Assembly (NCBI GenBank): GCA_947371015.1
Contig: CANBNK010000015.1
Location: 1 to 64,000 of the forward strand
Source: Acetobacteraceae bacterium
GTDB lineage: Bacteria; Pseudomonadota; Alphaproteobacteria; Acetobacterales; Acetobacteraceae
Length of the DNA: 64,000 nucleotides
Direction: 5' to 3'
Position numbers and translations under genes: made by a program. A model generated the notes under the pieces. The model was given only the letters and a program-made list of their open reading frames with translations, made no database searches and was not told the origin of the DNA. Within the stretch, counting starts at the first letter, position 1. Every line of letters starts with the position of its first letter. Positions 9,579 through 35,836 of this stretch are shown piece after piece.

Positions 9579-10475
9579 TTAAGGTTGCCAGAGCAGGCGG
9601 AAGCCGTCAACGCCAAGCCATTCAGAAACCACGCTTTTTACCACGGTTGTTGCCGAAGCCTGCAACAGCCGCTCCAACCGGCCGCGGGTTTCCACCGGCT
9701 GCACCGGCATTGCCTCGGGCACGCCCTTCTCCGCGGCCAGCCAGGCACGGGCCTCACGCTCGCCGCCGATGGCATCGACCAACCCGAGGCCGAGCGCCTG
9801 GCGGCCTGAGAAGACGCGGCCATCGGCCAGCGGCCGCACCACCTCCTCCGGCATGCGCCGGGCGGTGGCCACCTTGCGGACGAACTGGTCGTGCAGGTCG
9901 CTGATGACGCCCTGCAACACAGCCCGCGCCTCGGTCGAGAGGGGATGGAACGGGCTGGGCTGGTCCTTCAGCGGGCCGGAGACCAGGGCCTCACCCCGGA
10001 TGCCCAGCCGGCCCAACAGCTCCGAACCATCGACCGATTGCAGCAGCACGCCGATCGAGCCGGTGATGCTCATCTCCCGCGCGAAGATGCGTTCCGCCGG
10101 CAACGCGGCCATGTAGGCCGCCGAGGCCGCGGTGCCGCCCATCAGCGCAACCACCGGCTTGCGCTCGCGGATGGCGCTGAGCGCGGCGAACAGCGCCTCC
10201 CCGCCGCCGACGCTGCCGCCGGGACTGTCGATGGCGACCAGCACCGCCTTGACGCTGGCATCACGTCGCAGCCGGTCCAGCGCTGCGTTCAGCTTCGGGT
10301 CGTCGCCGATGAAGCCGCTGATGCTGACCCGCGCCACATGCCCGGCCGGCGTGCTGGCGCTGGCGAACAGCACGCCAAGCAACACCACCACGGCCAGCAC
10401 CGCGCCGGCACGCCAGATCGTCAGGTGCCGCTTCAACCGCTGGCGGTCGATCAGCAGGTCGGCTTGCATGCCCAT
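9579..10475 (-). CDS. sppA: Signal peptide peptidase SppA, short form
   Basis: A 298-residue membrane serine protease that degrades cleaved signal peptides. One N-terminal membrane anchor lies at about 22-39. The ClpP-like catalytic domain has the nucleophile Ser118 (GGTAASAAYMAA) and the general base Lys170 (SGPLKDQPSPF), the Ser-Lys dyad of SppA. DSPGGSVGGGEALF and ITGSIGVLLQ are typical. It is the first gene of the block leading through ihfB to trpF, with a gap of 30 bases before ihfB. rpsA, often upstream in relatives, is not present here. Confidence 0.94.
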   Translation of the reverse strand: MGMQADLLIDRQRLKRHLTIWRAGAVLAVVVLLGVLFASASTPAGHVARVSISGFIGDDPKLNAALDRLRRDASVKAVLVAIDSPGGSVGGGEALFAALSAIRERKPVVALMGGTAASAAYMAALPAERIFAREMSITGSIGVLLQSVDGSELLGRLGIRGEALVSGPLKDQPSPFHPLSTEARAVLQGVISDLHDQFVRKVATARRMPEEVVRPLADGRVFSGRQALGLGLVDAIGGEREARAWLAAEKGVPEAMPVQPVETRGRLERLLQASATTVVKSVVSEWLGVDGFRLLWQP

Positions 10476-26447: not shown

Positions 26448-27071
26448 ATGAGCGACGATGCGGCAACCAGACAGCAGGCGCGACGGCTGGCGACGCTGGC
26501 CACGATGTCGCGGCCGGTGCAGCACGAACTCAACAACCTGCTCACCGTCATCTTCGCCAATGTGGAATTGCTGAAGCGCAGCGCCGCCGAGGGCGCGCCG
26601 CAGCGCCAGCTGGACCGGATTCAACTGGCGACCCGGCGGCTGGATGATGCCACCCGCAGCATCCTGACCCTGAGCCGCCGCCAGGTACCGGAGGCGGCGG
26701 CAGCGGCACCGCTGGAGTGCCTGCGGCTGCTGGCACCGCTGTTGAAGCTGCTGCTCGCCGCCCCTGGCGCCCTGGTGCTGGACCTGCCGGAGGGCGAGGC
26801 CTGGAAGGTGCAGCTGGACCGTGCCGCGCTGGAACAGGCGCTGCTGGATCTGGCGCAGGACGCCGCGGCCACGCTGCCGCGCGGCGCCGGCCTCGTGCTG
26901 ACAATGGAACAGGCAGGGGAGCAGGCGGAAGCCGAGGTGCGGCTGGCGGTGGCATGGCCGGAAGGCGTGGCCGGGCCTGACGCCGCGGTGGTGGCGGGCT
27001 TCGTCGCCCTCGGCGCGGAACCGCCAGTGGCCGGGCGGCTGCTGCTGCGCTGGCCGCGCCTGATGGCCTGA
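26448..27071 (+). CDS. Histidine kinase-like protein with DHp helix pair but degenerate ATPase domain
   Basis: A 207-residue soluble protein. Residues 14-60 match a histidine kinase dimerisation domain: QHELNNLLTVIFANVELLKR has the phospho-accepting His26. The remainder (about 75-205) is ATPase-like in length, but the N-box asparagines are missing (LLDLAQDAAATLP) and no G-box is visible. It may be a histidine phosphotransferase of the ChpT type or a pseudo-kinase. A purine-rich ribosome site (GAGAGGAT) precedes ATG. It lies six bases before the YcaO gene, so the two should be co-expressed. Confidence 0.65.
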   Translation: MSDDAATRQQARRLATLATMSRPVQHELNNLLTVIFANVELLKRSAAEGAPQRQLDRIQLATRRLDDATRSILTLSRRQVPEAAAAAPLECLRLLAPLLKLLLAAPGALVLDLPEGEAWKVQLDRAALEQALLDLAQDAAATLPRGAGLVLTMEQAGEQAEAEVRLAVAWPEGVAGPDAAVVAGFVALGAEPPVAGRLLLRWPRLMA

Positions 27072-27077
27072 GGCGGC

Positions 27078-28376
27078 ATGGCCGAGCCGGTCTTCGCGGA
27101 TCTGGCCGCGGCGTTGCTGGCGCCGCGGCAGCCGGTTGGTGCCGAAGTGGCGGAGCTGCTGGCATGGCTCGGCCTGCCGCATGGCGACCCCGAGGGTGCC
27201 GCACCGGATGCCACCGTCCGGCATCGGGCGCGGATGTTCCAGGCGGCGGCGGGGTTCGAGCGCCTGTTCCAGCTGGAAGCCCCGGAAGCGCCGGGCATGG
27301 TGGTATTCGGTGCCGAGGTGGCGCCGGATGCTCTGGCGGCAGCGCCCGGGCTGAGGCTGATCGGGGTTTCCGGCACTGGGCTGGCGCCGCTGGAAGCGCT
27401 GGAATCCTGCATCGGCGAGGGGCTGGAACTGCTCAGCCAGGTGGAGACCGTGGCCGACCTGGCGCAGCAGCGCGCCGTGCCGCCCGATGGCGCCATGGCC
27501 GCCCTGCCGGCCGCCTGGCGGGACTGCGGGCCGGGCTGGATGCCGGTGCGGCGGCTGCGTGACGGCGCCACGCAATGGGTGCCGGCCGGGCTGTGCTTTC
27601 GCCGCCCGGGGGCGACGGCGCCCTGGCCGTTGAGCATCGGCTGTGCCGCCGGGCCAAGCACCGATGCCGCCGCGCTGCACGGCCTGCTGGAACTGGTGGA
27701 GCGCGACGCCGCCGCATTGTGGTGGCGGGGCGGGCGGCGGCCGCGGCCGCTGGCGCTGGAACACCCGGCGCTGGCCGACGCGGCGGCGTTGCTGGCGCGG
27801 CTGCGGCAGGGTGGCCGCGGCCGGCGCAGCTGGCTGTTGGACATCACCACGGATCTCGGCGTGCCGGCGGTGGCGGCGGTTTCGGTCGGGCTGGATGGCG
27901 CCGGCTTCTGCTGCGGCCTGGCGGCGCGGCCCGGGCTGGCGGCCGCCTGCCGCGCCGCCCTGCTGGAGCTCTGCCAGATGGAACTGGCCCTGGCGGTGGT
28001 GGCGGCGAAGCGGGAGGAAGGCGGCGAGGCCGCGCTGAACCCGCGCGACCTGTCGCACCAGGCGCGGTTCACCGGCATCCACGCCGCCCGCTGCGCGCTG
28101 CTGCACCCCCTGGGAGAGCCGGCGGCGGCCGAGGCCGCGGCACCGGAAACCACCCCTGCCGAGGCGCTGGCCGGGCTGGTCGCGGCGCTGGCGGCGCGCG
28201 GCCTCGACGTTCTGCTGCTGCCGCTGACCCGGCCCTCGCTGGGCGTGCCGGTGTGCCGGCTGCTCTGCCCGGGGCTGGAGGTGGAGCCAGCCGAGACGAT
28301 CGGGCCGCGACTGGCGGCGATGATCGCGGAAACCGGAGGCGGTGATTGCCTAACGGGTGGAATTCCGCTGATGTAA
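27078..28376 (+). CDS. YcaO-domain protein (ATP-dependent cyclodehydratase/thioamidation fold)
   Basis: A 432-residue YcaO-family protein. The two hallmark ATP-binding segments are present: GVSGTGLAPLEALESCIGEG (about 95-120), and CAAGPSTDAAALHGLLELVE followed by RDA (about 190-215). YcaO enzymes activate peptide backbone amides with ATP to make azolines, thioamides or amidines. The usual partners are absent next door: no TfuA, no E1/ocin-ThiF clan protein, no dehydrogenase, no obvious short precursor. It sits between the kinase-like gene and the BTAD regulator. The substrate is unknown. The YcaO call is by motif pattern; conserved C-terminal prolines are not obvious. Confidence 0.78.
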   Translation: MAEPVFADLAAALLAPRQPVGAEVAELLAWLGLPHGDPEGAAPDATVRHRARMFQAAAGFERLFQLEAPEAPGMVVFGAEVAPDALAAAPGLRLIGVSGTGLAPLEALESCIGEGLELLSQVETVADLAQQRAVPPDGAMAALPAAWRDCGPGWMPVRRLRDGATQWVPAGLCFRRPGATAPWPLSIGCAAGPSTDAAALHGLLELVERDAAALWWRGGRRPRPLALEHPALADAAALLARLRQGGRGRRSWLLDITTDLGVPAVAAVSVGLDGAGFCCGLAARPGLAAACRAALLELCQMELALAVVAAKREEGGEAALNPRDLSHQARFTGIHAARCALLHPLGEPAAAEAAAPETTPAEALAGLVAALAARGLDVLLLPLTRPSLGVPVCRLLCPGLEVEPAETIGPRLAAMIAETGGGDCLTGGIPLM

Positions 28377-28471: not shown

Positions 28472-30463
28472 ATGACGCTACAGGTCAGCCTCTTCGGGCC
28501 CATGCAGGCACGCTACAACGGCCAGGAGATCCGCCTGCGGGGCCGCAAGGCCCGCGCGGTGCTCGGCTACCTGGCCATCAGCGGCACCGGCGAGGAAACC
28601 CGCGAGCGGCTGGTCGGGCTGCTGTGGAGCGAAAGCAACGAGGACAACGCCCGGGCGTCGCTGCGGCAGACGCTGAAGGAGTTGCGCGAGGCGCTGGATG
28701 CGGTGGGCTGCCCGCATCTGCAGCCGGACCGCCTCAGCCTGGTGCTGCCGCCCGAGACGGTGGCGACCGACCTGGCCGAGCTGCTGCGGGCGGTCGAGGC
28801 CGATGGCGTGCCAGACCGGCTGCTGGACACGCCCTTGCTGCATGAAACCCTGCTGGAGGGGCTGGACGCGCTGGACCCGGCCTTCAGCGTCTGGCTGCGG
28901 ACCGTGCGGCAGGGCCTGCAGGACCGGCTGATGCGGACGCTGGAACCGCGGCTGGTGGATGCCGCCCACCCGGTGGCGGAGCGCCAACGGGTAGCGCAGG
29001 CGGTGCTGCGGCTGGACCCGACGCATGAGGAAGCCTGCCGCAGCCTGATGCGCGCCCAGGCCGAGACGGGCGACAGCGCCGCCGCGATGCGGAGCTACGA
29101 GGCGCTGTGGCACCTGCTGGACAAGGAGTTCGACAGCGAACCCGCGGCGGCGACGCAGAAGCTGGTGGCCGAGATCAAGCTGGGCCGGCTAGAGCCGGTG
29201 GCCCCCCCCACGCCGTCGTCGCACTCCACGCCAAATGGCGCAGTGCCGGCGCGCATCGCGCTGCTGGTGGAGCCCTTCCTGCTGAACGGCGTGGGGCCGG
29301 AGCAGCAGCACCTGACCCAGGGCTTCCGCCACGACCTGGTGGCCTGCCTGGTGCGGTTTCGCGAATGGTTCGTGGTGGACGGCCCGGTGCTGCCGCCGCC
29401 GGCGCAAACGGCGCAGCGCGTCTCCGCCCGCTACCGCATCGCCGCCACCGCCTATCGTGCCGGGGAAGGCATCAGCATGGTGCTGACGCTGTCGGAGGAT
29501 GAGAGCGGCTTCTGCGTCTGGAGCGACCGGATCGACCTGACGCTGCAAGGCTGGTTCGACACGCAGAGCCGCATCGTGCGGCGCATGGCGGTGGCGCTGA
29601 ACCTGCAGGTCTCCAGCGCCCGTATGGCGCGCCTGGCGCATGAGCCGGATGTCTCGCTGCCGGCCTTCGACCGCTGGCTGCGCAGCCAGGCGATGATGTT
29701 CGGCTTCCGCGGTGACGTGTGGGAACGCAACCTGGCACTGCTGCAGGAAACCGTGGCGGAATCGCCGCACTTCGCCCCGGCCTGGAGCTCGCTTGCGCAG
29801 ATGGACAGCGGCGCGCACATCATGCGGCCGGGCACCAGGCGGGACCGCACCAAGGAAGCGCGGGCACTGGCGAATGCGCGCCGCGCCGCGCAGTTGGACG
29901 CCACCGACGCGCGGTCCCAGCTGTGCCTTGGCTGGGCGCTGGCCATGGCCGGCCGGCACGCCCAGGCCGAGATCCACATGCGCCTGGCCGCCGACCTGAA
30001 CCCGCTGGATTCCTGGGTGCTGATGTCCTCGGCGCTGTTCTACTGTTTCTACGGCCAGCATGAACGGGCGGAGGAACTGGCCGAGCAGTCCATGGCGATG
30101 ACGCTGCTGCCGACCACGCTGCACTGGGGCTACCAGGTGACGCTGCGCTACCTGCGCGGCGACTACCTGGGCACGCTGGATGCCTGCGACCGCGCCGAGG
30201 ACGTGATCCGCACGCTGCCGGCCTGGCGGGCGGCGGCACTGGCGAACCTGGGCCGGCATGCGGAGGCGGCGGTCTCGGCGACGCGCTTCCTGCGCACGGT
30301 GCGGGACCACTGGTTTGGGGTTATGCCGCCGACCGACGAAGCAATCCTCGGCTGGTTGCTGCACCTGTATCCCATCGCCGATGCGCGGGACTGGGAGAAG
30401 CTGCGCGACGGCGTCGCCGCGGCGGGGTTGCCCACCGCGGGACGCCAACACGGGGATTGGTGA
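28472..30463 (+). CDS. SARP/AfsR-type BTAD transcriptional regulator with TPR-like C-terminus
   Basis: A 663-residue regulator. Residues 1-95 form an OmpR-like winged helix: LQVSLFGPMQARYNGQEIRL, then RKARAVLGYLAI and RASLRQTLKELREAL. Residues 100-235 are a bacterial transcriptional activation domain (LRLDPTHEEACRSLMRAQAE, LWHLLDKEFDSEP). About 265-400 resembles the regulatory domain found in cyclase-linked BTAD proteins, and 430-640 is made of TPR-like helices (ANARRAAQLDATDARSQLCL). No phosphorylation domain is seen. ATG at 28472 starts the fold directly; in-frame ATG 28418 and TTG 28346 are alternatives. It may control the neighbouring peroxidase/caspase-like operons. Confidence 0.85.
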   Translation: MTLQVSLFGPMQARYNGQEIRLRGRKARAVLGYLAISGTGEETRERLVGLLWSESNEDNARASLRQTLKELREALDAVGCPHLQPDRLSLVLPPETVATDLAELLRAVEADGVPDRLLDTPLLHETLLEGLDALDPAFSVWLRTVRQGLQDRLMRTLEPRLVDAAHPVAERQRVAQAVLRLDPTHEEACRSLMRAQAETGDSAAAMRSYEALWHLLDKEFDSEPAAATQKLVAEIKLGRLEPVAPPTPSSHSTPNGAVPARIALLVEPFLLNGVGPEQQHLTQGFRHDLVACLVRFREWFVVDGPVLPPPAQTAQRVSARYRIAATAYRAGEGISMVLTLSEDESGFCVWSDRIDLTLQGWFDTQSRIVRRMAVALNLQVSSARMARLAHEPDVSLPAFDRWLRSQAMMFGFRGDVWERNLALLQETVAESPHFAPAWSSLAQMDSGAHIMRPGTRRDRTKEARALANARRAAQLDATDARSQLCLGWALAMAGRHAQAEIHMRLAADLNPLDSWVLMSSALFYCFYGQHERAEELAEQSMAMTLLPTTLHWGYQVTLRYLRGDYLGTLDACDRAEDVIRTLPAWRAAALANLGRHAEAAVSATRFLRTVRDHWFGVMPPTDEAILGWLLHLYPIADARDWEKLRDGVAAAGLPTAGRQHGDW

Positions 30464-30603: not shown

Positions 30604-31023
30604 TCAAACGCAGTTGGCGATGGTGTAGTCACCGATGCGGCGGGCGTGGAACTTCATCCGGTCCTCATGCGTCTGCAGCGGCGCCGGCTGATGCTGGTAC
30701 GCTTCGTCGTAGAACGGCGGAAACGTATAATCCTCCTTCTCCAGACGGCGCTCGGAAGCCTCCACCAGGTTGGCCGGCGGCAGACGCAGCGTCATGGTGT
30801 CAGAGTTCATGTGCACCACCTGCAGGTGCTTCATCCGCTTGGGCAGCTTCAGGCCGGACTGCACCGCGTCCAGCTGCTCCTGCATTTCCTCCAGCGATTC
30901 CGGAATCGGATAGACCGTGCCGTCGTCGAAGTAGCTGCGGCCGGTGGACCAGGTCTTCACCAGGCGGCCCCAGTTTTCATAGTTGATGGCGGCGATGTTG
31001 ATCGGCTCGAGCATGTTGATCAT
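30604..31023 (-). CDS. Unknown 139-residue protein downstream of heme peroxidase
   Basis: I do not recognise this protein. It is soluble, without signal peptide or membrane segment. It is mixed charged and aromatic: INIAAINYENWGRLVKTWST near the start, then LPKRMKHLQVVHMNSDTMTL, YTFPPFYDEAYQHQPAP, and the tail RIGDYTIANCV. Its only cysteine is the penultimate residue. Eight histidines or so cluster in the second half. It lies 41 bases after the peroxidase on the same strand, with AAAGGA as ribosome site. It may be a partner or substrate of the peroxidase. The Cys-Val tail is a possible modification site. Confidence 0.7.
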   Translation of the reverse strand: MINMLEPINIAAINYENWGRLVKTWSTGRSYFDDGTVYPIPESLEEMQEQLDAVQSGLKLPKRMKHLQVVHMNSDTMTLRLPPANLVEASERRLEKEDYTFPPFYDEAYQHQPAPLQTHEDRMKFHARRIGDYTIANCV

Positions 31024-31064
31024 GGGGGGAGAAGTCCTTTCTCTCGGGGGGGTGGAAGGGGTGG

Positions 31065-32768
31065 TCAGATGAACGGCGGGTCCACCTGCTCAAGGCGGTA
31101 GTGGCGGGCCAGGAAGCCCACCAGGCCGGCCATGTCGTCGAAGGCCGGCAGCGGCCGGAAGCGGAACCCGCCCAGCCATTCGGCACACAGCCGGTCGAGC
31201 TGCGCGGCCAGGTCACCGCCACCGGCTTCGGCCGGCAGCGGGTCACGTGCCATGGCGCCATGCAGCGTCTCGGCGACGATCAGGGAGCCGAGGATGCCCA
31301 GGTGCCTGCCCTCGGCTTCGCGCTCGGCCTCGAACATCACGTAGAAGGGCAGCGGCGGCTCCACCGCCAGCGCGGCGATATCCGCGGCGCCGAGCCGGCT
31401 GACGCGGGGGCGTTGCACCAGCCAGCCGATCAGCGCCTGCTGCCTGAGCGCGCGGTCGGCCAGCATCGGGGAATGCCGGGCGAGTTCGGGGCGCAGCTGC
31501 AGGGCGCGGGCGCACAGGCTGTCCACCGAATGCAGCCCGGCCAGGCCGGCGCTGATCAGGTCGCGATAGGCCAGGCCCCAGGGGTCGCCCTCGGCCAGCG
31601 GGTCGAACAGCCCGTCGGTGACGAAGTTGCCGCTCATCTGCGGCCCGATGCATTTGCTCAGGTTGGGCTGTTGCTGACCTTCCAGCCGGAAGAAGCGCGA
31701 CCACTGCGCCACCCAGATCCGGCGGATCGGCATCAGGTCCGGGCTGCGGCCGGATGACTGGCGCAGCGTGGTGCCCAGCGGCAGCGGCTCCTCGGCATCG
31801 CCGAAATGGTAGCTGTCCCGCGCCATGGCGTGGCCGAAGCGGAAGGCGCCGTGGGTGAACTCCAGCGGAATGCCGGGGGCAGCCTCGATCTCCAGCAGCG
31901 CGGTGCTGCCGTTGGCGTACAGCTCTCGCACCGCCGGGTGCAGGATGCGCGGCAGGATGTCGGTGCGGACCAGGTGGCGCCAGATCAGCGTCGTCGCTTC
32001 CCGTGCGACGGCAAAGCGCAGGTTGTGGCCGCGCACCCGGTGGCCGATGGTCGCGGTATTGCCTTCCGGCTGCATCGCCACCAGCGCGTTGTGCAGCAGC
32101 TGGAACAGCGAGGTGACCTGCGAGATCAGCGAATGGCTGTCGTTGCGCTGGTCCGCCACCAGCGGCTCTGGGAAGCCATCCGTGCCGCCGCTGGTGCCGA
32201 TGGTGCTGGCGCGGCCAATGTCGCGGTAGTCGCTGTCCTTTGCCGGCGTGTTCGGGTCGAACGGCCCGATACGTGACATGCGGAAGCGGCTGCGGCTCTG
32301 GTCCTGCGGGTCGTCGGGGGCGAAGGGGAAGGGGCAGCCGGTGGGGCCGCTGCCGTACAGCGTGTCCAGCCGCAGCGCGCGGGGCCGCAGGTTCTCCACC
32401 TCGGCGCCGCCACCATGGCTGGCCCAGACCGGCAGGCTGGACTGCACCAGGTCATGCGCCAGGAATTGCAGGGTGTAGGTGTAGCCGGCGGGCAGCTCGG
32501 GGTTGTCCGGCCAGTCCTCGTCGCGGTTGCCCATCAGCATCGCCACGCCGCGCATCCGGCGGCGCAGCGTGGCCAGGGCCGTGGCTGAAAACCGCGGGTC
32601 CTCGCCATCCACCTGGAAGCGCTGCGCCGGCGTGGGTGTGCCCAGGATGTGGCGGAAGCCGGCCGGCGTGGCGGCGGCATTCGCCGGCGCCGGCATGGCC
32701 CCCTGCTGGTCTGCGCCGCCATGCCCGCTGAACGGACAGGACCGTACCGCGCCGCCATGCGCCTGCAT
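31065..32768 (-). CDS. Animal-type heme peroxidase
   Basis: A 567-residue bacterial member of the peroxidase-cyclooxygenase superfamily. The distal site is LQFLAHDL (His105, with Asp106 as the calcium ligand). ADQRNDSHSL followed by LFQLLHNAL matches the catalytic Arg/calcium region. The proximal heme ligand is His313 in AFRFGHAMARDSY. These enzymes use hydrogen peroxide to oxidise halides, thiocyanate or organic molecules. No signal peptide is seen: the N-terminus is Gly/His-rich, so location is unclear. ATG at 32768 follows a strong site GGAGAGG. It heads a two-gene operon and diverges from the caspase-like operon. Confidence 0.87.
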   Translation of the reverse strand: MQAHGGAVRSCPFSGHGGADQQGAMPAPANAAATPAGFRHILGTPTPAQRFQVDGEDPRFSATALATLRRRMRGVAMLMGNRDEDWPDNPELPAGYTYTLQFLAHDLVQSSLPVWASHGGGAEVENLRPRALRLDTLYGSGPTGCPFPFAPDDPQDQSRSRFRMSRIGPFDPNTPAKDSDYRDIGRASTIGTSGGTDGFPEPLVADQRNDSHSLISQVTSLFQLLHNALVAMQPEGNTATIGHRVRGHNLRFAVAREATTLIWRHLVRTDILPRILHPAVRELYANGSTALLEIEAAPGIPLEFTHGAFRFGHAMARDSYHFGDAEEPLPLGTTLRQSSGRSPDLMPIRRIWVAQWSRFFRLEGQQQPNLSKCIGPQMSGNFVTDGLFDPLAEGDPWGLAYRDLISAGLAGLHSVDSLCARALQLRPELARHSPMLADRALRQQALIGWLVQRPRVSRLGAADIAALAVEPPLPFYVMFEAEREAEGRHLGILGSLIVAETLHGAMARDPLPAEAGGGDLAAQLDRLCAEWLGGFRFRPLPAFDDMAGLVGFLARHYRLEQVDPPFI

Positions 32769-32813
32769 CGTTTTGCCTCTCCTCGAACCGGAGTGGCAGT
32801 TTGCTCAAGCGTC

Positions 32814-32864
32814 CGTGATGTCAGCGTGAATCGGTACGCGGCTGGAATTCACGCTGGCATCACG
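32814..32864. promoter_or_regulatory. 18-bp inverted repeat in the divergent peroxidase / caspase-like promoter gap
   Basis: Arms 32814-32831 (CGTGATGTCAGCGTGAAT) and 32847-32864 (ATTCACGCTGGCATCACG) are complementary at 17 of 18 positions, separated by 15 bases. The gap between the two divergent starts is only 119 bases. The element is therefore well placed as a shared operator, or as a 5'-leader hairpin of the plus-strand gene. The nearby BTAD regulator is a possible binder, which is inference. Confidence 0.65.
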
Positions 32865-32887
32865 GGGCCACGGCCACGCTTGCCGCC

Positions 32888-33466
32888 ATGGACGGATACC
32901 CCCACGAAAAGCAGGCGATGAGCCTGGCCGAGCGTCGCGTGGCCGAGGCCTTCGTGGTCGCCATGCGGGCCGATATGTCGGACGCGCCCTATGGCGCCCC
33001 CTTCGCGGCGCAACCGACGCAGCCGGAATGGCTGATCGTCTCGCGCTGGGGGCTTTCAGCGGAGTATCTCAGCGTCTCCCGCACCGGGCAGGCGGCGCCG
33101 GGCGACGGCGCGGCGCCGGCCAACCTGCAACCGCGCCAGACCTTCTTCGGCGTGCGCACCGCCGGCCCGGCGGTGGAACCCTGCTTTCTGCTGCTGCGCC
33201 ACCTGCCGGCGGATATGCCGGTGGCGGGGATGTTCATGCCCACCGACGGCTTCGTCCGCCTGGTCGGGCCAACCCACCTGCTCGGCCTGGTCGCCGCCGG
33301 CCGCCACGCGCACATGCTGGGGCGGCGCAATGGGCTGCCGCTCTGCGCCGACGTGCCCTGCCCACCCGAAGGCGCCGAGGGCGCCCGGGCCTGGGGCATC
33401 ACCGCGCAGCGACGGCCGTGGCTGGGCGACTTCGTCGAGCGCAGCATCGGCGCCACGGTCGCCTGA
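32888..33466 (+). CDS. Unknown 192-residue protein preceding the caspase-like gene
   Basis: I do not recognise a family. It is soluble and appears globular, with strands around EWLIVSRWGLSAEYLSVSR, QTFFGVRTAGPAVEPCFLLL and GMFMPTDGFVRLVGPTHLLG. No signal peptide, membrane segment or metal motif is clear. The start is uncertain: ATG 32888, or ATG 32918 (MSLAERRVAEAF), which has AGCAGG upstream. It lies nine bases before the caspase-like gene and so is almost surely co-expressed with it. It could be a partner, adaptor or inhibitor. Confidence 0.7.
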   Translation: MDGYPHEKQAMSLAERRVAEAFVVAMRADMSDAPYGAPFAAQPTQPEWLIVSRWGLSAEYLSVSRTGQAAPGDGAAPANLQPRQTFFGVRTAGPAVEPCFLLLRHLPADMPVAGMFMPTDGFVRLVGPTHLLGLVAAGRHAHMLGRRNGLPLCADVPCPPEGAEGARAWGITAQRRPWLGDFVERSIGATVA

Positions 33467-33475
33467 GCCAACCCC

Positions 33476-35836
33476 ATGCCGCAAACCGACTTCGCTATTC
33501 TGCTTGGCCTGCCACGCGTCACCGCGGCGGGCGGCGACGTCGCGGCGGAAACCCGCCGCGTGGCGGCCGATGTCGCGGCCATGCGCGCCTGGCTGCTGCA
33601 CCCCGGGGGCGGCCGGCTGCTGCCGGAGCAGCTGCGTTGCGTGGCCCCCAATCTGGCCATGGCAACCGGCCGGCAAGCCTCCCGGCCGCTGCTGGCGCAG
33701 CTGGAAGCCGCGCTGGCGGAGCTGGAAGCGCTGTCTCGCCGGCAGGTGGTCGCCGGGCGTGGGCCGCGGCTCGGGCGGCGGCTGACGCTGTATATCTCCG
33801 GCCAGGCCTGCCTGCCGGGACGCTACCGTCCAAGCACCCCGGCCAGGCCGGGCGCCCCGCTGCTGGCCAATGCCTGGTTGGCCTGGGCGCAGCTCAGCGG
33901 CATGTTCCACGAGGTGGTGCTGTGGCTGGATTGCGGGCTGGACAACCCGGCCTACCTGGCGCGACGGGAACCGCCGCCACTGGTTGCCGGCGCCGCGACG
34001 GCGGGGCCCGGCATGGTCGCGCTGGCGGCACGGCGGCCCTTCCTGCCGGCGCTGATCTCGCCGCCGCCGGGGTTCGGCGCCCCCCCGGGGACGCAGACCG
34101 GCGCGCTGACCGGTGCGTTGACCTGGGCACTGCTGGAAGGCCTGCGCGGCGCCGCGGCCAATGCGCATGGCCAGGTCACCGGCCGCAGCCTGGCGGACTG
34201 GCTGCGCAACGCCCAGGGCGGCCGCCTGCCCGCCGATGCCCCGGCCACGCTGGCCCGCGAACCCGAGGTGATCCAGGCCGACGCCGCGCTGCTGCTGGCC
34301 GAGGGCGTTGCCCCGCCGCACTACGCGGTGCGGCTGCGGCTGCCGCCGGCGGCGCTGGGCCTGCCGGTGCGGCTGTGGCATGGCGCGCCGGCACGGCTGG
34401 AGCCTGGGCTGGGCCTGGGCCGCGCCGTGCATGACATTGCGCTGCAGCCGGGGCTGTACCTGCTGGACGTGCCCGAGGCCGGGCTGCGCCAGGGCTTCGA
34501 GGTGACCGGGCCGACCGAGGTGACGCTGCGCGAAACTGGTGCGCCGGTGCAGCCGGAGGCGATCGGGCAGGCCTTGCCGCTGACGCTGCAGGTCGCCGAC
34601 CCGACCATGCGGTGCGCGGTGCTGGACCATCGCTTCGCCTTGGCACGCTGCGCACTGGGGGGCTTGGCGGCCCAACTGCCGGGCGGGCTGTACAAGCTGC
34701 GCTGCCGCCAGGGCCGCGACCTGAGTGTTCAGGTGGTGCTGCTGGACCGCGCGACCACGCTGGCGGTGGGCGTCCCGGCCGTTGCCTCGGCCCCGTTGCC
34801 CCGGCTGGAGGCGACCGGCGCCACCGATGCCGTGCTGCGGCTGACCGGGCCGATCGGCCAGGGCGTTTCCGTGGTGGATACGCATGGGCTGACCGTGCTG
34901 GACCTGGCGCATGACGGCCTGGCTGAGGACGCCGATGCCGTCTCGGCTTCGCCGTGCCGCCGCATCGTGGCCTGCACCCGGGCGCTGCCGCCCGGCGGCT
35001 ACTTCCTGCGCCGCCGGCTGGGGCCGTTGCGCGGCGCCGCTGCCCCGCTGATGGAGCAGAGCCTGGTGCTGGCCCCGGGCTGGGCGCTGGATGTCACGGT
35101 GCCAGCCATGCTCCCGGGGGCGCCGCCGCCGCCGGTCTCCCTGCTGATGCGACCGCTGGCGGGGCCGCCGCCAAGCGCCGCGCAGGAAGCGCTGGCGGCC
35201 GCCATGGCCATTGCCCTGGCCGACCGCCGGCGCATCCTGACCCCGGCGCTGGAAGCGGCGCTGGCCGGGCGGCTGGTCGATCCGCTGGCCGGCATCCTGT
35301 TCGGCCACCACCTGCTGCTGGAACAGGAATTCGATGCCGGGCGCGACGTGAGCGCGCTGAACCGGCTGGTGCGGGAGCTGGAGCAGCTGCTCGGGCCGCT
35401 GCACCCAGATGTGGAGGCGCTGGCGCTACGCTGCCCGGACCCGTCGCTGCGGCCTTCCCGCCCGGTGCCCGTGCTGCCGATGTTCATGCGCAGCTGGCGG
35501 CTGCTGGTGGCGGGCAGCCACCAGTCCCGCGCCCTGTTGCCACGCAAGCTGTGGGAACGCGCGGTGGCGCGCACGGCGCAGTCGCCCTTCCTGGCCTGGT
35601 CCATGGATGGCCGGCAGCGCCAGGCGGTGCAGCGCGAACTGGCCGAGGCAACCTGGGGCACCGCGGAGATGGCCGCCACCGGTGCGGCCCCGGTCGGCAA
35701 TGTGGTGCCCTTCGCCCGCGCAGTACCGGTGAAGTCCGGCCGCGGCGCGGCGCGGCGCCGGGCGCTGCTGCTGGATGTGCCGCTCTCGGCGCTGGAACTG
35801 CTGGCAGAGGTGTATGAGGACTACGCTGGCGACTGA
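33476..35836 (+). CDS. Caspase-fold (peptidase C14-like) protein with a lost catalytic histidine
   Basis: A 786-residue protein. The first 245 residues follow the caspase p20/p10 pattern: FAILLGLPRV (6-15), LTLYISGQA (103-111, where active enzymes have SGHG), VVLWLDCGLD (147-156, Cys153 in the place of the nucleophile) and ALTGALTWALLEGLRGAA (210-227), then GQVTGRSLADWL. The catalytic His is Gln110, so it is probably inactive as a protease. Residues 250-560 look like beta-rich modules; 575-700 are helical (LNRLVRELEQLLGPLHPDVE). No membrane segment is seen. It may be a scaffold or sensor coupled to the peroxidase operon. Confidence 0.7.
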   Translation: MPQTDFAILLGLPRVTAAGGDVAAETRRVAADVAAMRAWLLHPGGGRLLPEQLRCVAPNLAMATGRQASRPLLAQLEAALAELEALSRRQVVAGRGPRLGRRLTLYISGQACLPGRYRPSTPARPGAPLLANAWLAWAQLSGMFHEVVLWLDCGLDNPAYLARREPPPLVAGAATAGPGMVALAARRPFLPALISPPPGFGAPPGTQTGALTGALTWALLEGLRGAAANAHGQVTGRSLADWLRNAQGGRLPADAPATLAREPEVIQADAALLLAEGVAPPHYAVRLRLPPAALGLPVRLWHGAPARLEPGLGLGRAVHDIALQPGLYLLDVPEAGLRQGFEVTGPTEVTLRETGAPVQPEAIGQALPLTLQVADPTMRCAVLDHRFALARCALGGLAAQLPGGLYKLRCRQGRDLSVQVVLLDRATTLAVGVPAVASAPLPRLEATGATDAVLRLTGPIGQGVSVVDTHGLTVLDLAHDGLAEDADAVSASPCRRIVACTRALPPGGYFLRRRLGPLRGAAAPLMEQSLVLAPGWALDVTVPAMLPGAPPPPVSLLMRPLAGPPPSAAQEALAAAMAIALADRRRILTPALEAALAGRLVDPLAGILFGHHLLLEQEFDAGRDVSALNRLVRELEQLLGPLHPDVEALALRCPDPSLRPSRPVPVLPMFMRSWRLLVAGSHQSRALLPRKLWERAVARTAQSPFLAWSMDGRQRQAVQRELAEATWGTAEMAATGAAPVGNVVPFARAVPVKSGRGAARRRALLLDVPLSALELLAEVYEDYAGD

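What the first reader, a model, noticed from the sequence alone, without database searches (positions are those of the whole stretch)
30604..35836. Heme peroxidase and pseudo-caspase in a divergent four-gene module
An animal-type heme peroxidase with an unknown 139-residue protein diverges from an unknown 192-residue protein and a caspase-fold protein that lacks its catalytic His. The start gap is only 119 bases and holds an 18-bp inverted repeat. A peroxidase paired with a caspase-like protein suggests redox-triggered signalling, stress defence or cell suicide. I know of no described system with this set.
Basis: partly seen in the sequence, partly recalled or inferred. Interest (0 to 1): 0.82.

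Follow-up and report, generated by a model that had tools for sequence, protein, structure and literature searches.

The report
Peroxidase–YcaO cassette with precursor-like protein
What looked like a peroxidase paired with a dead caspase is the edge of a conserved bacterial gene cassette, with its own switch sequence, that probably modifies the tail of a small precursor-like protein; the caspase-like gene is a local extra.

Summary
The four genes and the inverted repeat are real, and all four are syntenic in 6 of 6 genomes of the window's genus. The more widely conserved unit is different: YcaO and a BTAD/TPR (SARP-like) regulator beside peroxidase and the 139-aa protein (p139). All 28 p139 loci found have the peroxidase adjacent; all 27 assessable have the regulator and a YcaO (one shortened). 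Carriers include sampled genomes of the window's family, five other families of its class, and plasmids of Mesorhizobium huakuii and Paroceanicella profunda. The pseudo-caspase occurs only in the window's genus; other lineages have other genes in that slot. p139 ends R-[IVL]-[GA]-D-Y-x4-C-x in 28 of 28 and remotely resembles nitrile-hydratase-like RiPP leaders (hhalign E 2.5e-5; 0 of 100 shuffles). The repeat is two divergent 11-bp direct-repeat boxes of SARP geometry, present upstream of 22 of 27 peroxidases; in six whole genomes all 9 strict matches lie in this promoter. Best reading: a SARP-controlled RiPP-like pathway in which YcaO and a heme peroxidase modify a conserved Tyr/Cys tail. Chemistry and product are inferred. 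Caspase homology is weak; both catalytic residues look lost. No description was found in an open-access library.

The parts
26448..27071 (+). HisKA-domain protein, 207 aa; genus-level neighbour upstream of YcaO
   Evidence: Pfam HisKA 2.5e-8; present upstream of YcaO in 5 of 5 assessable genus loci (window, L020, L022, L023, L024; L021 is cut off there)
27078..28376 (+). YcaO protein, 432 aa; proposed ATP-dependent backbone-modifying enzyme
   Evidence: Pfam YcaO 4.7e-52; family profile hits TruD and LynD at about 4e-27; E114, E117, E205, E208, E297, Q300 invariant in 17 members; found at 27 of 27 assessable p139 loci, one shortened
28472..30463 (+). BTAD/TPR (SARP-like) transcriptional regulator, about 663 aa
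   Evidence: Pfam BTAD 2.2e-12, weak Trans_reg_C and TPR; start from a codon-usage call; found at 27 of 27 assessable p139 loci
30604..31023 (-). p139: proposed NHLP-like precursor (or otherwise modified) protein with conserved C-terminal tail RIGDYTIANC-x
   Evidence: 28 homologues, all beside a peroxidase gene; Cys penultimate in 28 of 28; hhalign to NHLP E 2.5e-5, 0 of 100 shuffles; most conserved of the four genes in the genus
31065..32768 (-). animal-type haem peroxidase relative, 567 aa; distal Gln/His and proximal His kept, distal Arg of the REHN motif replaced
32815..32829 (+). SARP-type 11-bp direct-repeat box GTGATGTCAGCGTGA, 47-61 bases before the peroxidase start codon (GTGA strand opposite to the peroxidase)
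32849..32863 (-). second, divergent box GTGATGCCAGCGTGA; ends 25 bases before the start of p192
32888..33466 (+). p192: accessory protein of unknown fold
   Evidence: found at 18 of 26 assessable p139 loci; no Pfam or PDB relative
33476..35836 (+). caspase-like (pseudo-protease) 786-aa protein; genus-specific accessory
   Evidence: full length in 6 of 6 genus genomes and in no other of 249 family genomes; weak C14 similarity; His->Gln, Cys->Gly by alignment

Best explanation
The finding is one half of a SARP-regulated, RiPP-like peptide-modification cassette. p139 is a long-leader precursor (or a protein that carries a modified tail). Its leader is a remote relative of nitrile-hydratase-like leader peptides and its 'core' is the fixed C-terminal tail R-I-G-D-Y-[T/S]-I-x-x-C-x. 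The YcaO enzyme binds the folded leader and modifies the tail in an ATP-dependent step, most likely at the penultimate Cys (azoline or thioamide). The haem peroxidase, encoded directly upstream of p139, oxidises the product (azoline to azole in place of the usual FMN dehydrogenase, or a Tyr/Cys oxidation or cross-link). The BTAD/TPR regulator encoded with YcaO activates the peroxidase-p139 operon and the divergent accessory operon through 11-bp direct-repeat boxes. Accessory genes in the divergent slot differ by lineage: p192 plus the pseudo-caspase here, methyltransferase plus p192 in another genus, a vanadium chloroperoxidase-type or pro-kumamolisin-type protein elsewhere. Shown: gene set, co-occurrence, tail conservation, boxes. 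Inferred: that YcaO and the peroxidase act on p139, the chemistry, that the boxes are bound by the BTAD protein, and the product's role. A tail this conserved, and no transporter conserved across the cassettes, fit a cofactor-like or cell-internal product better than a variable antibiotic.
For: Co-occurrence: in 249 family genomes the 19 with a close peroxidase (E <= 1.8e-44) are exactly the 19 with p139, and the 13 genomes with only a weaker peroxidase hit have none (Fisher 7e-29, rows not phylogenetically independent). Of 28 p139 loci, 28 have the peroxidase adjacent (one cut by a contig end) and 27 of 27 assessable have BTAD and YcaO (L074 is cut off after p139, L021's and L087's YcaO run off the contig, L126's YcaO is short). 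Tail: R129, D132, Y133, C138 are 4 of the 6 columns invariant in 28 sequences, and Cys is penultimate in 28 of 28. Leader: p139 vs NHLP hhalign E 2.5e-5, probability 75%, 0 of 100 shuffles; with fewer p139 sequences it was 2.1e-4 or 4.7e-4 (other settings). YcaO relatives in the PDB are the RiPP enzymes TruD and LynD. A published model has a YcaO cyclodehydratase binding structured NHLPs by protein/protein contact (abstract of PMC12455567). Boxes: in 22 of 27 peroxidase upstream regions against at most 1 of 27 in any of 500 shuffles; in six whole genomes all 9 strict matches lie in this divergent promoter, 1 reversed-pattern control. The 11-bp spacing is a stated feature of SARP sites (passages of PMC4393881).
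Against: The one E1-like partner model tried (TIGR03882) passes its cut-off in 0 of 6 genus genomes; an FMN dehydrogenase or RiPP exporter was not noticed in the cassettes by eye, and no model search was made for them. p139 matches no NHLP model directly and lacks the Gly-Gly leader cleavage site of NHLPs. RiPP cores are usually variable, whereas this tail is fixed. NHLP was chosen by eye before testing, so its E-value is for a selected comparison, and 8 of the 11 NHLP rows come from two genomes. The link to nitrile hydratase alpha itself is not significant (E 0.042, 9 of 100 shuffles). The tail Thr/Ser is Val in 2 of 28. One locus (L126) keeps peroxidase and p139 with a shortened YcaO. The peroxidase lacks the canonical distal Arg, so its activity is uncertain. 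No box was found upstream of 5 of 27 peroxidases, and the box pattern was drawn from some of the sequences it was then counted in.
Confidence: 0.5

Rival explanations
1. p139 is not a precursor but a dedicated small partner (subunit, activator or chaperone) of the haem peroxidase, its conserved tail docking into the enzyme; YcaO modifies the peroxidase or the partner to make an active enzyme.
For: p139 and peroxidase are adjacent at 28 of 28 loci. Invariant residues lie outside the tail too (G19, Y99). One locus keeps both with a shortened YcaO (L126). No Gly-Gly cleavage site, and no exporter conserved.
Against: Does not by itself explain why YcaO accompanies the pair at all 27 assessable loci, nor the NHLP-like profile or the fixed spacing of Cys to the C-terminus.
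Confidence: 0.25
2. One reading: a redox-triggered signalling, stress-defence or cell-suicide module in which the peroxidase signals through the caspase-like protein.
For: Genus-wide synteny of the four genes and conserved boxes in the start gap.
Against: The caspase-like gene was not found outside the genus (and the loci) and both catalytic residues seem lost. No hit to defence models apart from a chance-level one for the regulator. The conserved partners are YcaO and a SARP-like regulator.
Confidence: 0.06
3. A haloperoxidase/oxidation gene cluster for a small-molecule or surface product (not a peptide): the peroxidase and accessory oxidases or methyltransferases make the product, and YcaO/p139 serve another step such as cofactor supply.
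For: Accessory genes include a vanadium chloroperoxidase-type protein (L086) and a methyltransferase-like protein (L073); SARP regulators control natural-product clusters in Streptomyces (PMC4393881).
Against: No scaffold-building enzyme is conserved in the cassettes; the shared set is peroxidase, p139, BTAD and YcaO only.
Confidence: 0.12

Closest known systems
TOMM / azol(in)e RiPPs with nitrile-hydratase-like leader peptides (NHLP)
   Same: YcaO enzyme related to TruD/LynD; precursor-like protein whose central part resembles NHLP; Cys near the C-terminus
   Different: haem peroxidase as the constant second enzyme, no E1-like partner over the cut-off with the one model tried, no Gly-Gly site, no conserved exporter noticed, core fixed instead of hypervariable
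NHLP-Burk precursors (TIGR03795)
   Same: long NHLP-like leader with a short C-terminal part; one member of each Burkholderia pair ends in Cys or Cys-Cys (passages of PMC2887384)
   Different: tandem or fused pairs, accompanied by a kinase in Burkholderia; p139 is single, beside a peroxidase, and hits no such model
TfuA-YcaO thioamidated RiPPs
   Same: YcaO enzymes that work without an E1-like partner (recalled)
   Different: TfuA was not searched for; the constant partners seen are a haem peroxidase and p139
PQQ- or mycofactocin-type peptide-derived cofactors (recalled)
   Same: a fixed core containing Tyr in a small precursor, conserved across families
   Different: built there by radical SAM enzymes (recalled), none noticed in these cassettes; YcaO and haem peroxidase instead
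Streptomyces antibiotic regulatory proteins (SARP) and their sites
   Same: BTAD-containing regulator; 11-bp-spaced direct repeats in target promoters (PMC4393881)
   Different: alphaproteobacterial, TPR-extended, box GTGAnnncAGCGTGA unlike the cited oxy repeat
bacterial caspase-like (Peptidase_C14) proteins
   Same: weak profile similarity over 79 columns including the Cys-loop region
   Different: no Pfam match; His->Gln and Cys->Gly; genus-specific

Membership tests
TOMM (YcaO azol(in)e RiPP) | YcaO (D) protein related to known cyclodehydratases | tested here: met
   Pfam 4.7e-52; TruD/LynD about 4e-27; SagD-family model hit below its cut-off (119 vs 219 bits)
TOMM (YcaO azol(in)e RiPP) | E1-like C-domain partner (or fusion) | tested here: inconclusive
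   TIGR03882 over its cut-off in 0 of 6 genus genomes; sub-threshold hits also ring in 6 of 14 control genomes; other E1-like models not tried
TOMM (YcaO azol(in)e RiPP) | FMN dehydrogenase (B) for azole formation (optional in the class) | not tested
   none noticed in the cassettes by eye; no model search made
TOMM (YcaO azol(in)e RiPP) | C-terminal PxPxP of azoline-forming YcaO (recalled) | tested here: not met
   window YcaO ends TGGIPLM and none of the 17 members of A7 ends in PxPxP
NHLP precursor | leader similar to nitrile hydratase alpha / NHLP | tested here: inconclusive
   no direct model hit in 19 members; hhalign to NHLP E 2.5e-5, 0 of 100 shuffles; to NHase alpha E 0.042, 9 of 100 shuffles
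NHLP precursor | Gly-Gly cleavage site followed by a hypervariable core | tested here: not met
   no Gly-Gly column conserved; tail conserved; definition from passages of PMC2887384
SARP-regulated system | OmpR-like DNA-binding domain plus BTAD | tested here: met
   BTAD 2.2e-12 over the cut-off; Trans_reg_C only weak (E 0.042, under its cut-off)
SARP-regulated system | 11-bp-spaced direct repeats in target promoters | tested here: met
   22 of 27 peroxidase upstreams; 9 of 9 strict matches in six genomes lie here; binding itself not testable
Animal haem peroxidase superfamily | domain match, distal Gln/His and proximal His | tested here: met
   An_peroxidase 3.7e-5 (22.9 vs cut-off 25 bits); lactoperoxidase 5.5e-7; Q101, H105, H313 invariant in 20 aligned sequences; roles of residues recalled
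Animal haem peroxidase superfamily | distal catalytic Arg of the REHN motif (role recalled) | tested here: not met
   FQLLHN-type sequences face FVREHN of lactoperoxidase; no Arg there in 20 of 20 aligned
Caspase / Peptidase_C14 | Pfam C14 match | tested here: not met
   0 of 6 members; not among 16 C14 hits in 6 genomes at E<=10
Caspase / Peptidase_C14 | caspase fold | tested here: inconclusive
   hhalign E 0.011, 0 of 60 shuffles; earlier faulty run E 0.24; AlphaFold pLDDT 36.6
Caspase / Peptidase_C14 | catalytic His/Cys dyad | tested here: not met
   His position Gln (Leu in L024), by eye from the motif; Cys position Gly (Ala in L024) by alignment
Known anti-phage defence system | match to PADLOC models | tested here: not met
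   7 window proteins, one hit only, a chance-level E 0.01 for the TPR region of the regulator

The most novel reading that the evidence does not exclude
A new class of peptide-derived product, possibly a redox cofactor: a folded NHLP-like leader presents a conserved Tyr-x4-Cys tail to a stand-alone YcaO and a haem peroxidase that together build it, under a dedicated SARP-type regulon in alphaproteobacteria.
Probability: 0.3. Interest if true: 0.88.

Novelty: new variant of a known kind. Interest (0 to 1): 0.7.

Why it matters
Animal-type haem peroxidases occur in bacteria with few assigned roles (recalled). A fixed partnership with a YcaO enzyme and a small protein with an invariant Tyr/Cys tail gives a concrete substrate, enzyme pair and regulon to test. 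If the tail is modified, it would add a haem peroxidase to the RiPP tool kit and suggest a conserved, cofactor-like peptide product in alphaproteobacteria, among them a rhizobium. The box also gives a practical way to find regulon members in other genomes.

Tried and rejected
Caspase as core: rejected, because it was found only in the genus. Two further weak hits of that search (L007, L008) fall where the strongest coding ORF is an unrelated gene of about 640 aa, so they were treated as chance. Defence system: padloc gave nothing usable. Direct Pfam, NCBIfam and PDB searches for p139, p192 and the caspase-like protein gave no relative. AlphaFold with the permitted alignments (5 close sequences each) gave unusable models (pLDDT 36.6 and 50.4), so no fold search was run. 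The helix-helix-strand-strand-helix order of the p139 model agrees with an NHLP-like leader but is not evidence at that confidence. p139 against nitrile hydratase alpha: not significant. E1-like partner (one model): none over the cut-off. Plasmid search with p139 alone found nothing, although two plasmids carry divergent p139 genes, found through the peroxidase; of 9 plasmid records with a peroxidase match I looked at these 2 only.

Rows dropped or corrected: 5 weak p139 hits in the family search (E 0.001-0.003, about 50 C-terminal residues in ORFs of about 370 aa) were not counted as p139. L081 was left out of the upstream-box count because the contig ends inside its peroxidase. The first caspase comparison contained two wrong-strand rows (L138, L142) and was negative; the corrected run is. 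The genome searches score only a few first-look candidates per genome (5, up to 10, up to 13), so absences are not proof. Box counts use the relaxed pattern written; the strict pattern is that.
Full report
OBSERVATION. Between the two divergent starts lie 119 bases with an inverted repeat of 19-nt arms, 95% complementary. The window's relatives are metagenome-assembled genomes titled 'Acetobacteraceae bacterium' or 'uncultured Rhodospirillales bacterium' (four records); I therefore take its family (f1) to be Acetobacteraceae. All four genes are in the same order in 6 of 6 genomes of the genus, and so are YcaO and a BTAD gene on one side and an amidohydrolase on the other. Identity to the window protein is highest for p139 (97, 94, 94, 91, 79%), then peroxidase (93-77%), p192 (87-67%) and the 786-aa protein (76-59%).

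THE REAL UNIT. I searched 249 family genomes with the peroxidase profile and with the p139 profile. There were 32 genomes with a peroxidase hit at 1e-10. The 19 with a close peroxidase (E <= 1.8e-44) are exactly the 19 with p139; the other 13 have only remote peroxidases (best E 2.6e-22) and no p139. Five more weak p139 hits (E 0.001-0.003) cover only the C-terminal part and were not counted. Neighbourhoods of the 13 non-genus loci were fetched and genes called by codon usage and named by BLAST to the window proteins. YcaO and BTAD homologues lie beside the pair in 12 of the 13; the contig of the thirteenth (L074) ends right after p139. Wider searches gave p139 in 3 of 385 class genomes and 6 of 299 in the phylum draw, all in the same class; each count includes the window's own genome. 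Those seven new loci, from five further families, carry peroxidase, p139, BTAD and YcaO. The YcaO of L087 is cut by a contig end, and in L126 the space between BTAD and p192 holds only a shortened YcaO. Two annotated plasmids, of Paroceanicella profunda (NZ_CP040824.1) and Mesorhizobium huakuii (NZ_CP139859.1), carry the same four genes, with p139 and BTAD annotated as hypothetical proteins; in the second the YcaO is turned round, so the usual order (YcaO-BTAD meeting peroxidase-p139 tail to tail) is not invariant. In total 28 p139 loci: peroxidase adjacent in 28, BTAD and YcaO in 27 of 27 assessable, p192 in 18 of 26 assessable (L074 and L087 cut), the 786-aa protein in 6. Each absence is at BLAST sensitivity and within the stretch fetched.

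ACCESSORY SLOT. The gene or genes transcribed away from the peroxidase change by lineage. Here they are p192 and the 786-aa protein. In genus g36 they are a methyltransferase-like protein (tested in L073: Methyltransf_25 E 9.7e-5, below its cut-off) and p192. In L086 it is a vanadium chloroperoxidase-type protein, in L087 a protein with pro-kumamolisin and subtilase domains. So the caspase-like protein is one of several local extras. No transporter is shared by the cassettes; in M. huakuii a DMT-family transporter precedes the peroxidase.

P139. In 28 sequences (down to 20% identity) six columns are invariant: G19, Y99, R129, D132, Y133, C138. Four are in the last eleven residues, and the protein ends exactly one residue after the Cys in 28 of 28. 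Mean column entropy is 0.93 bits in the last 11 residues against 1.88 in the rest. The central part (LP…V..LxVV…DT..LRLPP…SE..L) resembles nitrile-hydratase-like leader peptides. A profile of 11 such sequences, taken from genomes found with TIGR03793 (8 of the 11 from two genomes), aligns to p139 with hhalign E 2.1e-4 for 21 p139 sequences (4.7e-4 with other settings) and 2.5e-5, probability 75%, for 28 sequences. In both script runs 0 of 100 column shuffles reach the score; p192 as a control gives E 0.27. Against nitrile hydratase alpha the same region aligns, but not significantly (E 0.042; 9 of 100 shuffles). I chose NHLP by eye before testing it, so the E-value is somewhat flattering. In scans of 19 members the best NCBIfam and Pfam hits were E 0.079 and 0.1, each in one member.

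ENZYMES. The YcaO profile hits TruD and LynD in the PDB at about 4e-27, and the acidic and Gln residues expected of the ATP site (role recalled) are invariant in 17 members. None of the 17 ends in PxPxP (a mark of azoline-forming YcaO, recalled). The one E1-like partner model tried, TIGR03882, passes its cut-off in 0 of 6 genus genomes. The peroxidase keeps the distal Gln-x3-His-Asp and the proximal His, but in 20 of 20 aligned sequences (one of them the remote paralogue L083; L075, L081 and L124-L130 were not aligned) the Arg of the mammalian REHN motif is replaced, so it may not be a classical peroxidase.

REGULATION. The inverted repeat is two copies of GTGAnnncAGCGTGA facing each other. 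Each copy is a direct repeat with an 11-bp period. That is the geometry described for SARP (BTAD) regulators, whose repeats are 11 bp apart (passages of PMC4393881). In six whole genomes (about 31 Mb) the strict pattern occurs 9 times, all 9 in this promoter, against 1 reversed control. Across genera a box of the relaxed pattern lies within 400 bases upstream (or the first 60 bases) of 22 of 27 peroxidase starts; in 16 of the 22 its far end is 55-64 bases before the start on the same relative strand. In 500 shuffles the mean was 0.04 loci and the most 1. The pattern was drawn from some of these sequences. None was found for L079, L080, L127, L129 and L130. Boxes also lie between YcaO and p192 in L075, L078 and L124-L126 and upstream of YcaO in L128. 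The boxes suggest that p192 and the 786-aa gene share a regulon with the peroxidase and p139. That the BTAD protein binds them is inferred from geometry and linkage.

CASPASE CLAIM. No Pfam caspase match in 6 members, and PF00656 finds 16 other loci in 5 of 6 genus genomes but not this one. Profile comparison is weak (E 0.011, 0 of 60 shuffles; an earlier run with two wrong-strand rows was negative, E 0.24 with 11 of 60 shuffles). The alignment puts Gly where the catalytic Cys should be, and the His position, read by eye, is Gln (Leu in one). AlphaFold failed. I accept 'caspase-like, catalytically dead' as likely but unproven.

MECHANISM AND NOVELTY. The best-supported reading is a SARP-controlled RiPP-like cassette with p139 as precursor and YcaO plus haem peroxidase as modifying enzymes; what is shown and what is inferred is marked in the explanation section. 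The literature searches found no paper with YcaO and 'heme peroxidase' together or with YcaO, nitrile hydratase, leader peptide and peroxidase, and one irrelevant YcaO/BTAD hit. Nothing fitting was seen in the listings of wider searches (24 of 24 listed; 5 of 5; 10 of 55; 10 of 12; 12 of 152; titles and abstract starts). A survey of Acetobacteraceae clusters (PMC8776678, passages) names Roseomonas mucosa as the only species with a cluster encoding a YcaO and does not mention this cassette in those passages. The TOMM landscape paper (PMC4603692, passages; 0 mentions of peroxidase) and the NHLP paper (PMC2887384, passages; 0 mentions of peroxidase) do not describe it there either. The library holds only open-licence papers, so a description elsewhere cannot be excluded. 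I rate it a new variant of a known kind (YcaO/RiPP-like pathways): it works like one in outline, but the NHLP test fails on the Gly-Gly site and the variable core, the TOMM test on PxPxP, and the E1 partner was not found with the one model tried.

Noticed in passing
L073:13547-16744 (-), also L069, L070, L072: A protein of roughly 1000-1160 aa with Ig-like and RTX calcium-binding repeats (domains tested in L073 only) lies directly upstream of YcaO in four of five g36 loci; possibly a secreted member of the cassette there.
   Followed up: partly
L083:6045-12277: A second, remote peroxidase in a genus genome (G015) sits beside another BTAD/TPR regulator, a PAP2-domain protein with an N-terminal GNM repeat, and an unlabelled 436-aa ORF, without a p139 or YcaO match in the 14 kb fetched.
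   Followed up: partly
L124:14637, L125:14691, L126:14079: An extra conserved box GTGATTTCAGCGTGA next to a small gene (118, 118 and 108 aa; no Pfam match for the L124 one) in three loci of the unnamed genus g365: a possible further regulon member.
   Followed up: no
window 10249-10264 (-): A single near-copy of the box (1 mismatch), the only other match to that pattern in the window's genome.
   Followed up: no
L126:11621-12441: YcaO appears shortened in one genome (G888) that keeps peroxidase, p139, BTAD and p192: a natural test of whether p139 needs YcaO.
   Followed up: no
G008:C3:219262-219414 and four similar hits: The p139 tail region weakly matches ORFs of about 370 aa in five family genomes of 2.9-3.5 Mb (E 0.001-0.003); possibly chance.
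   Followed up: no
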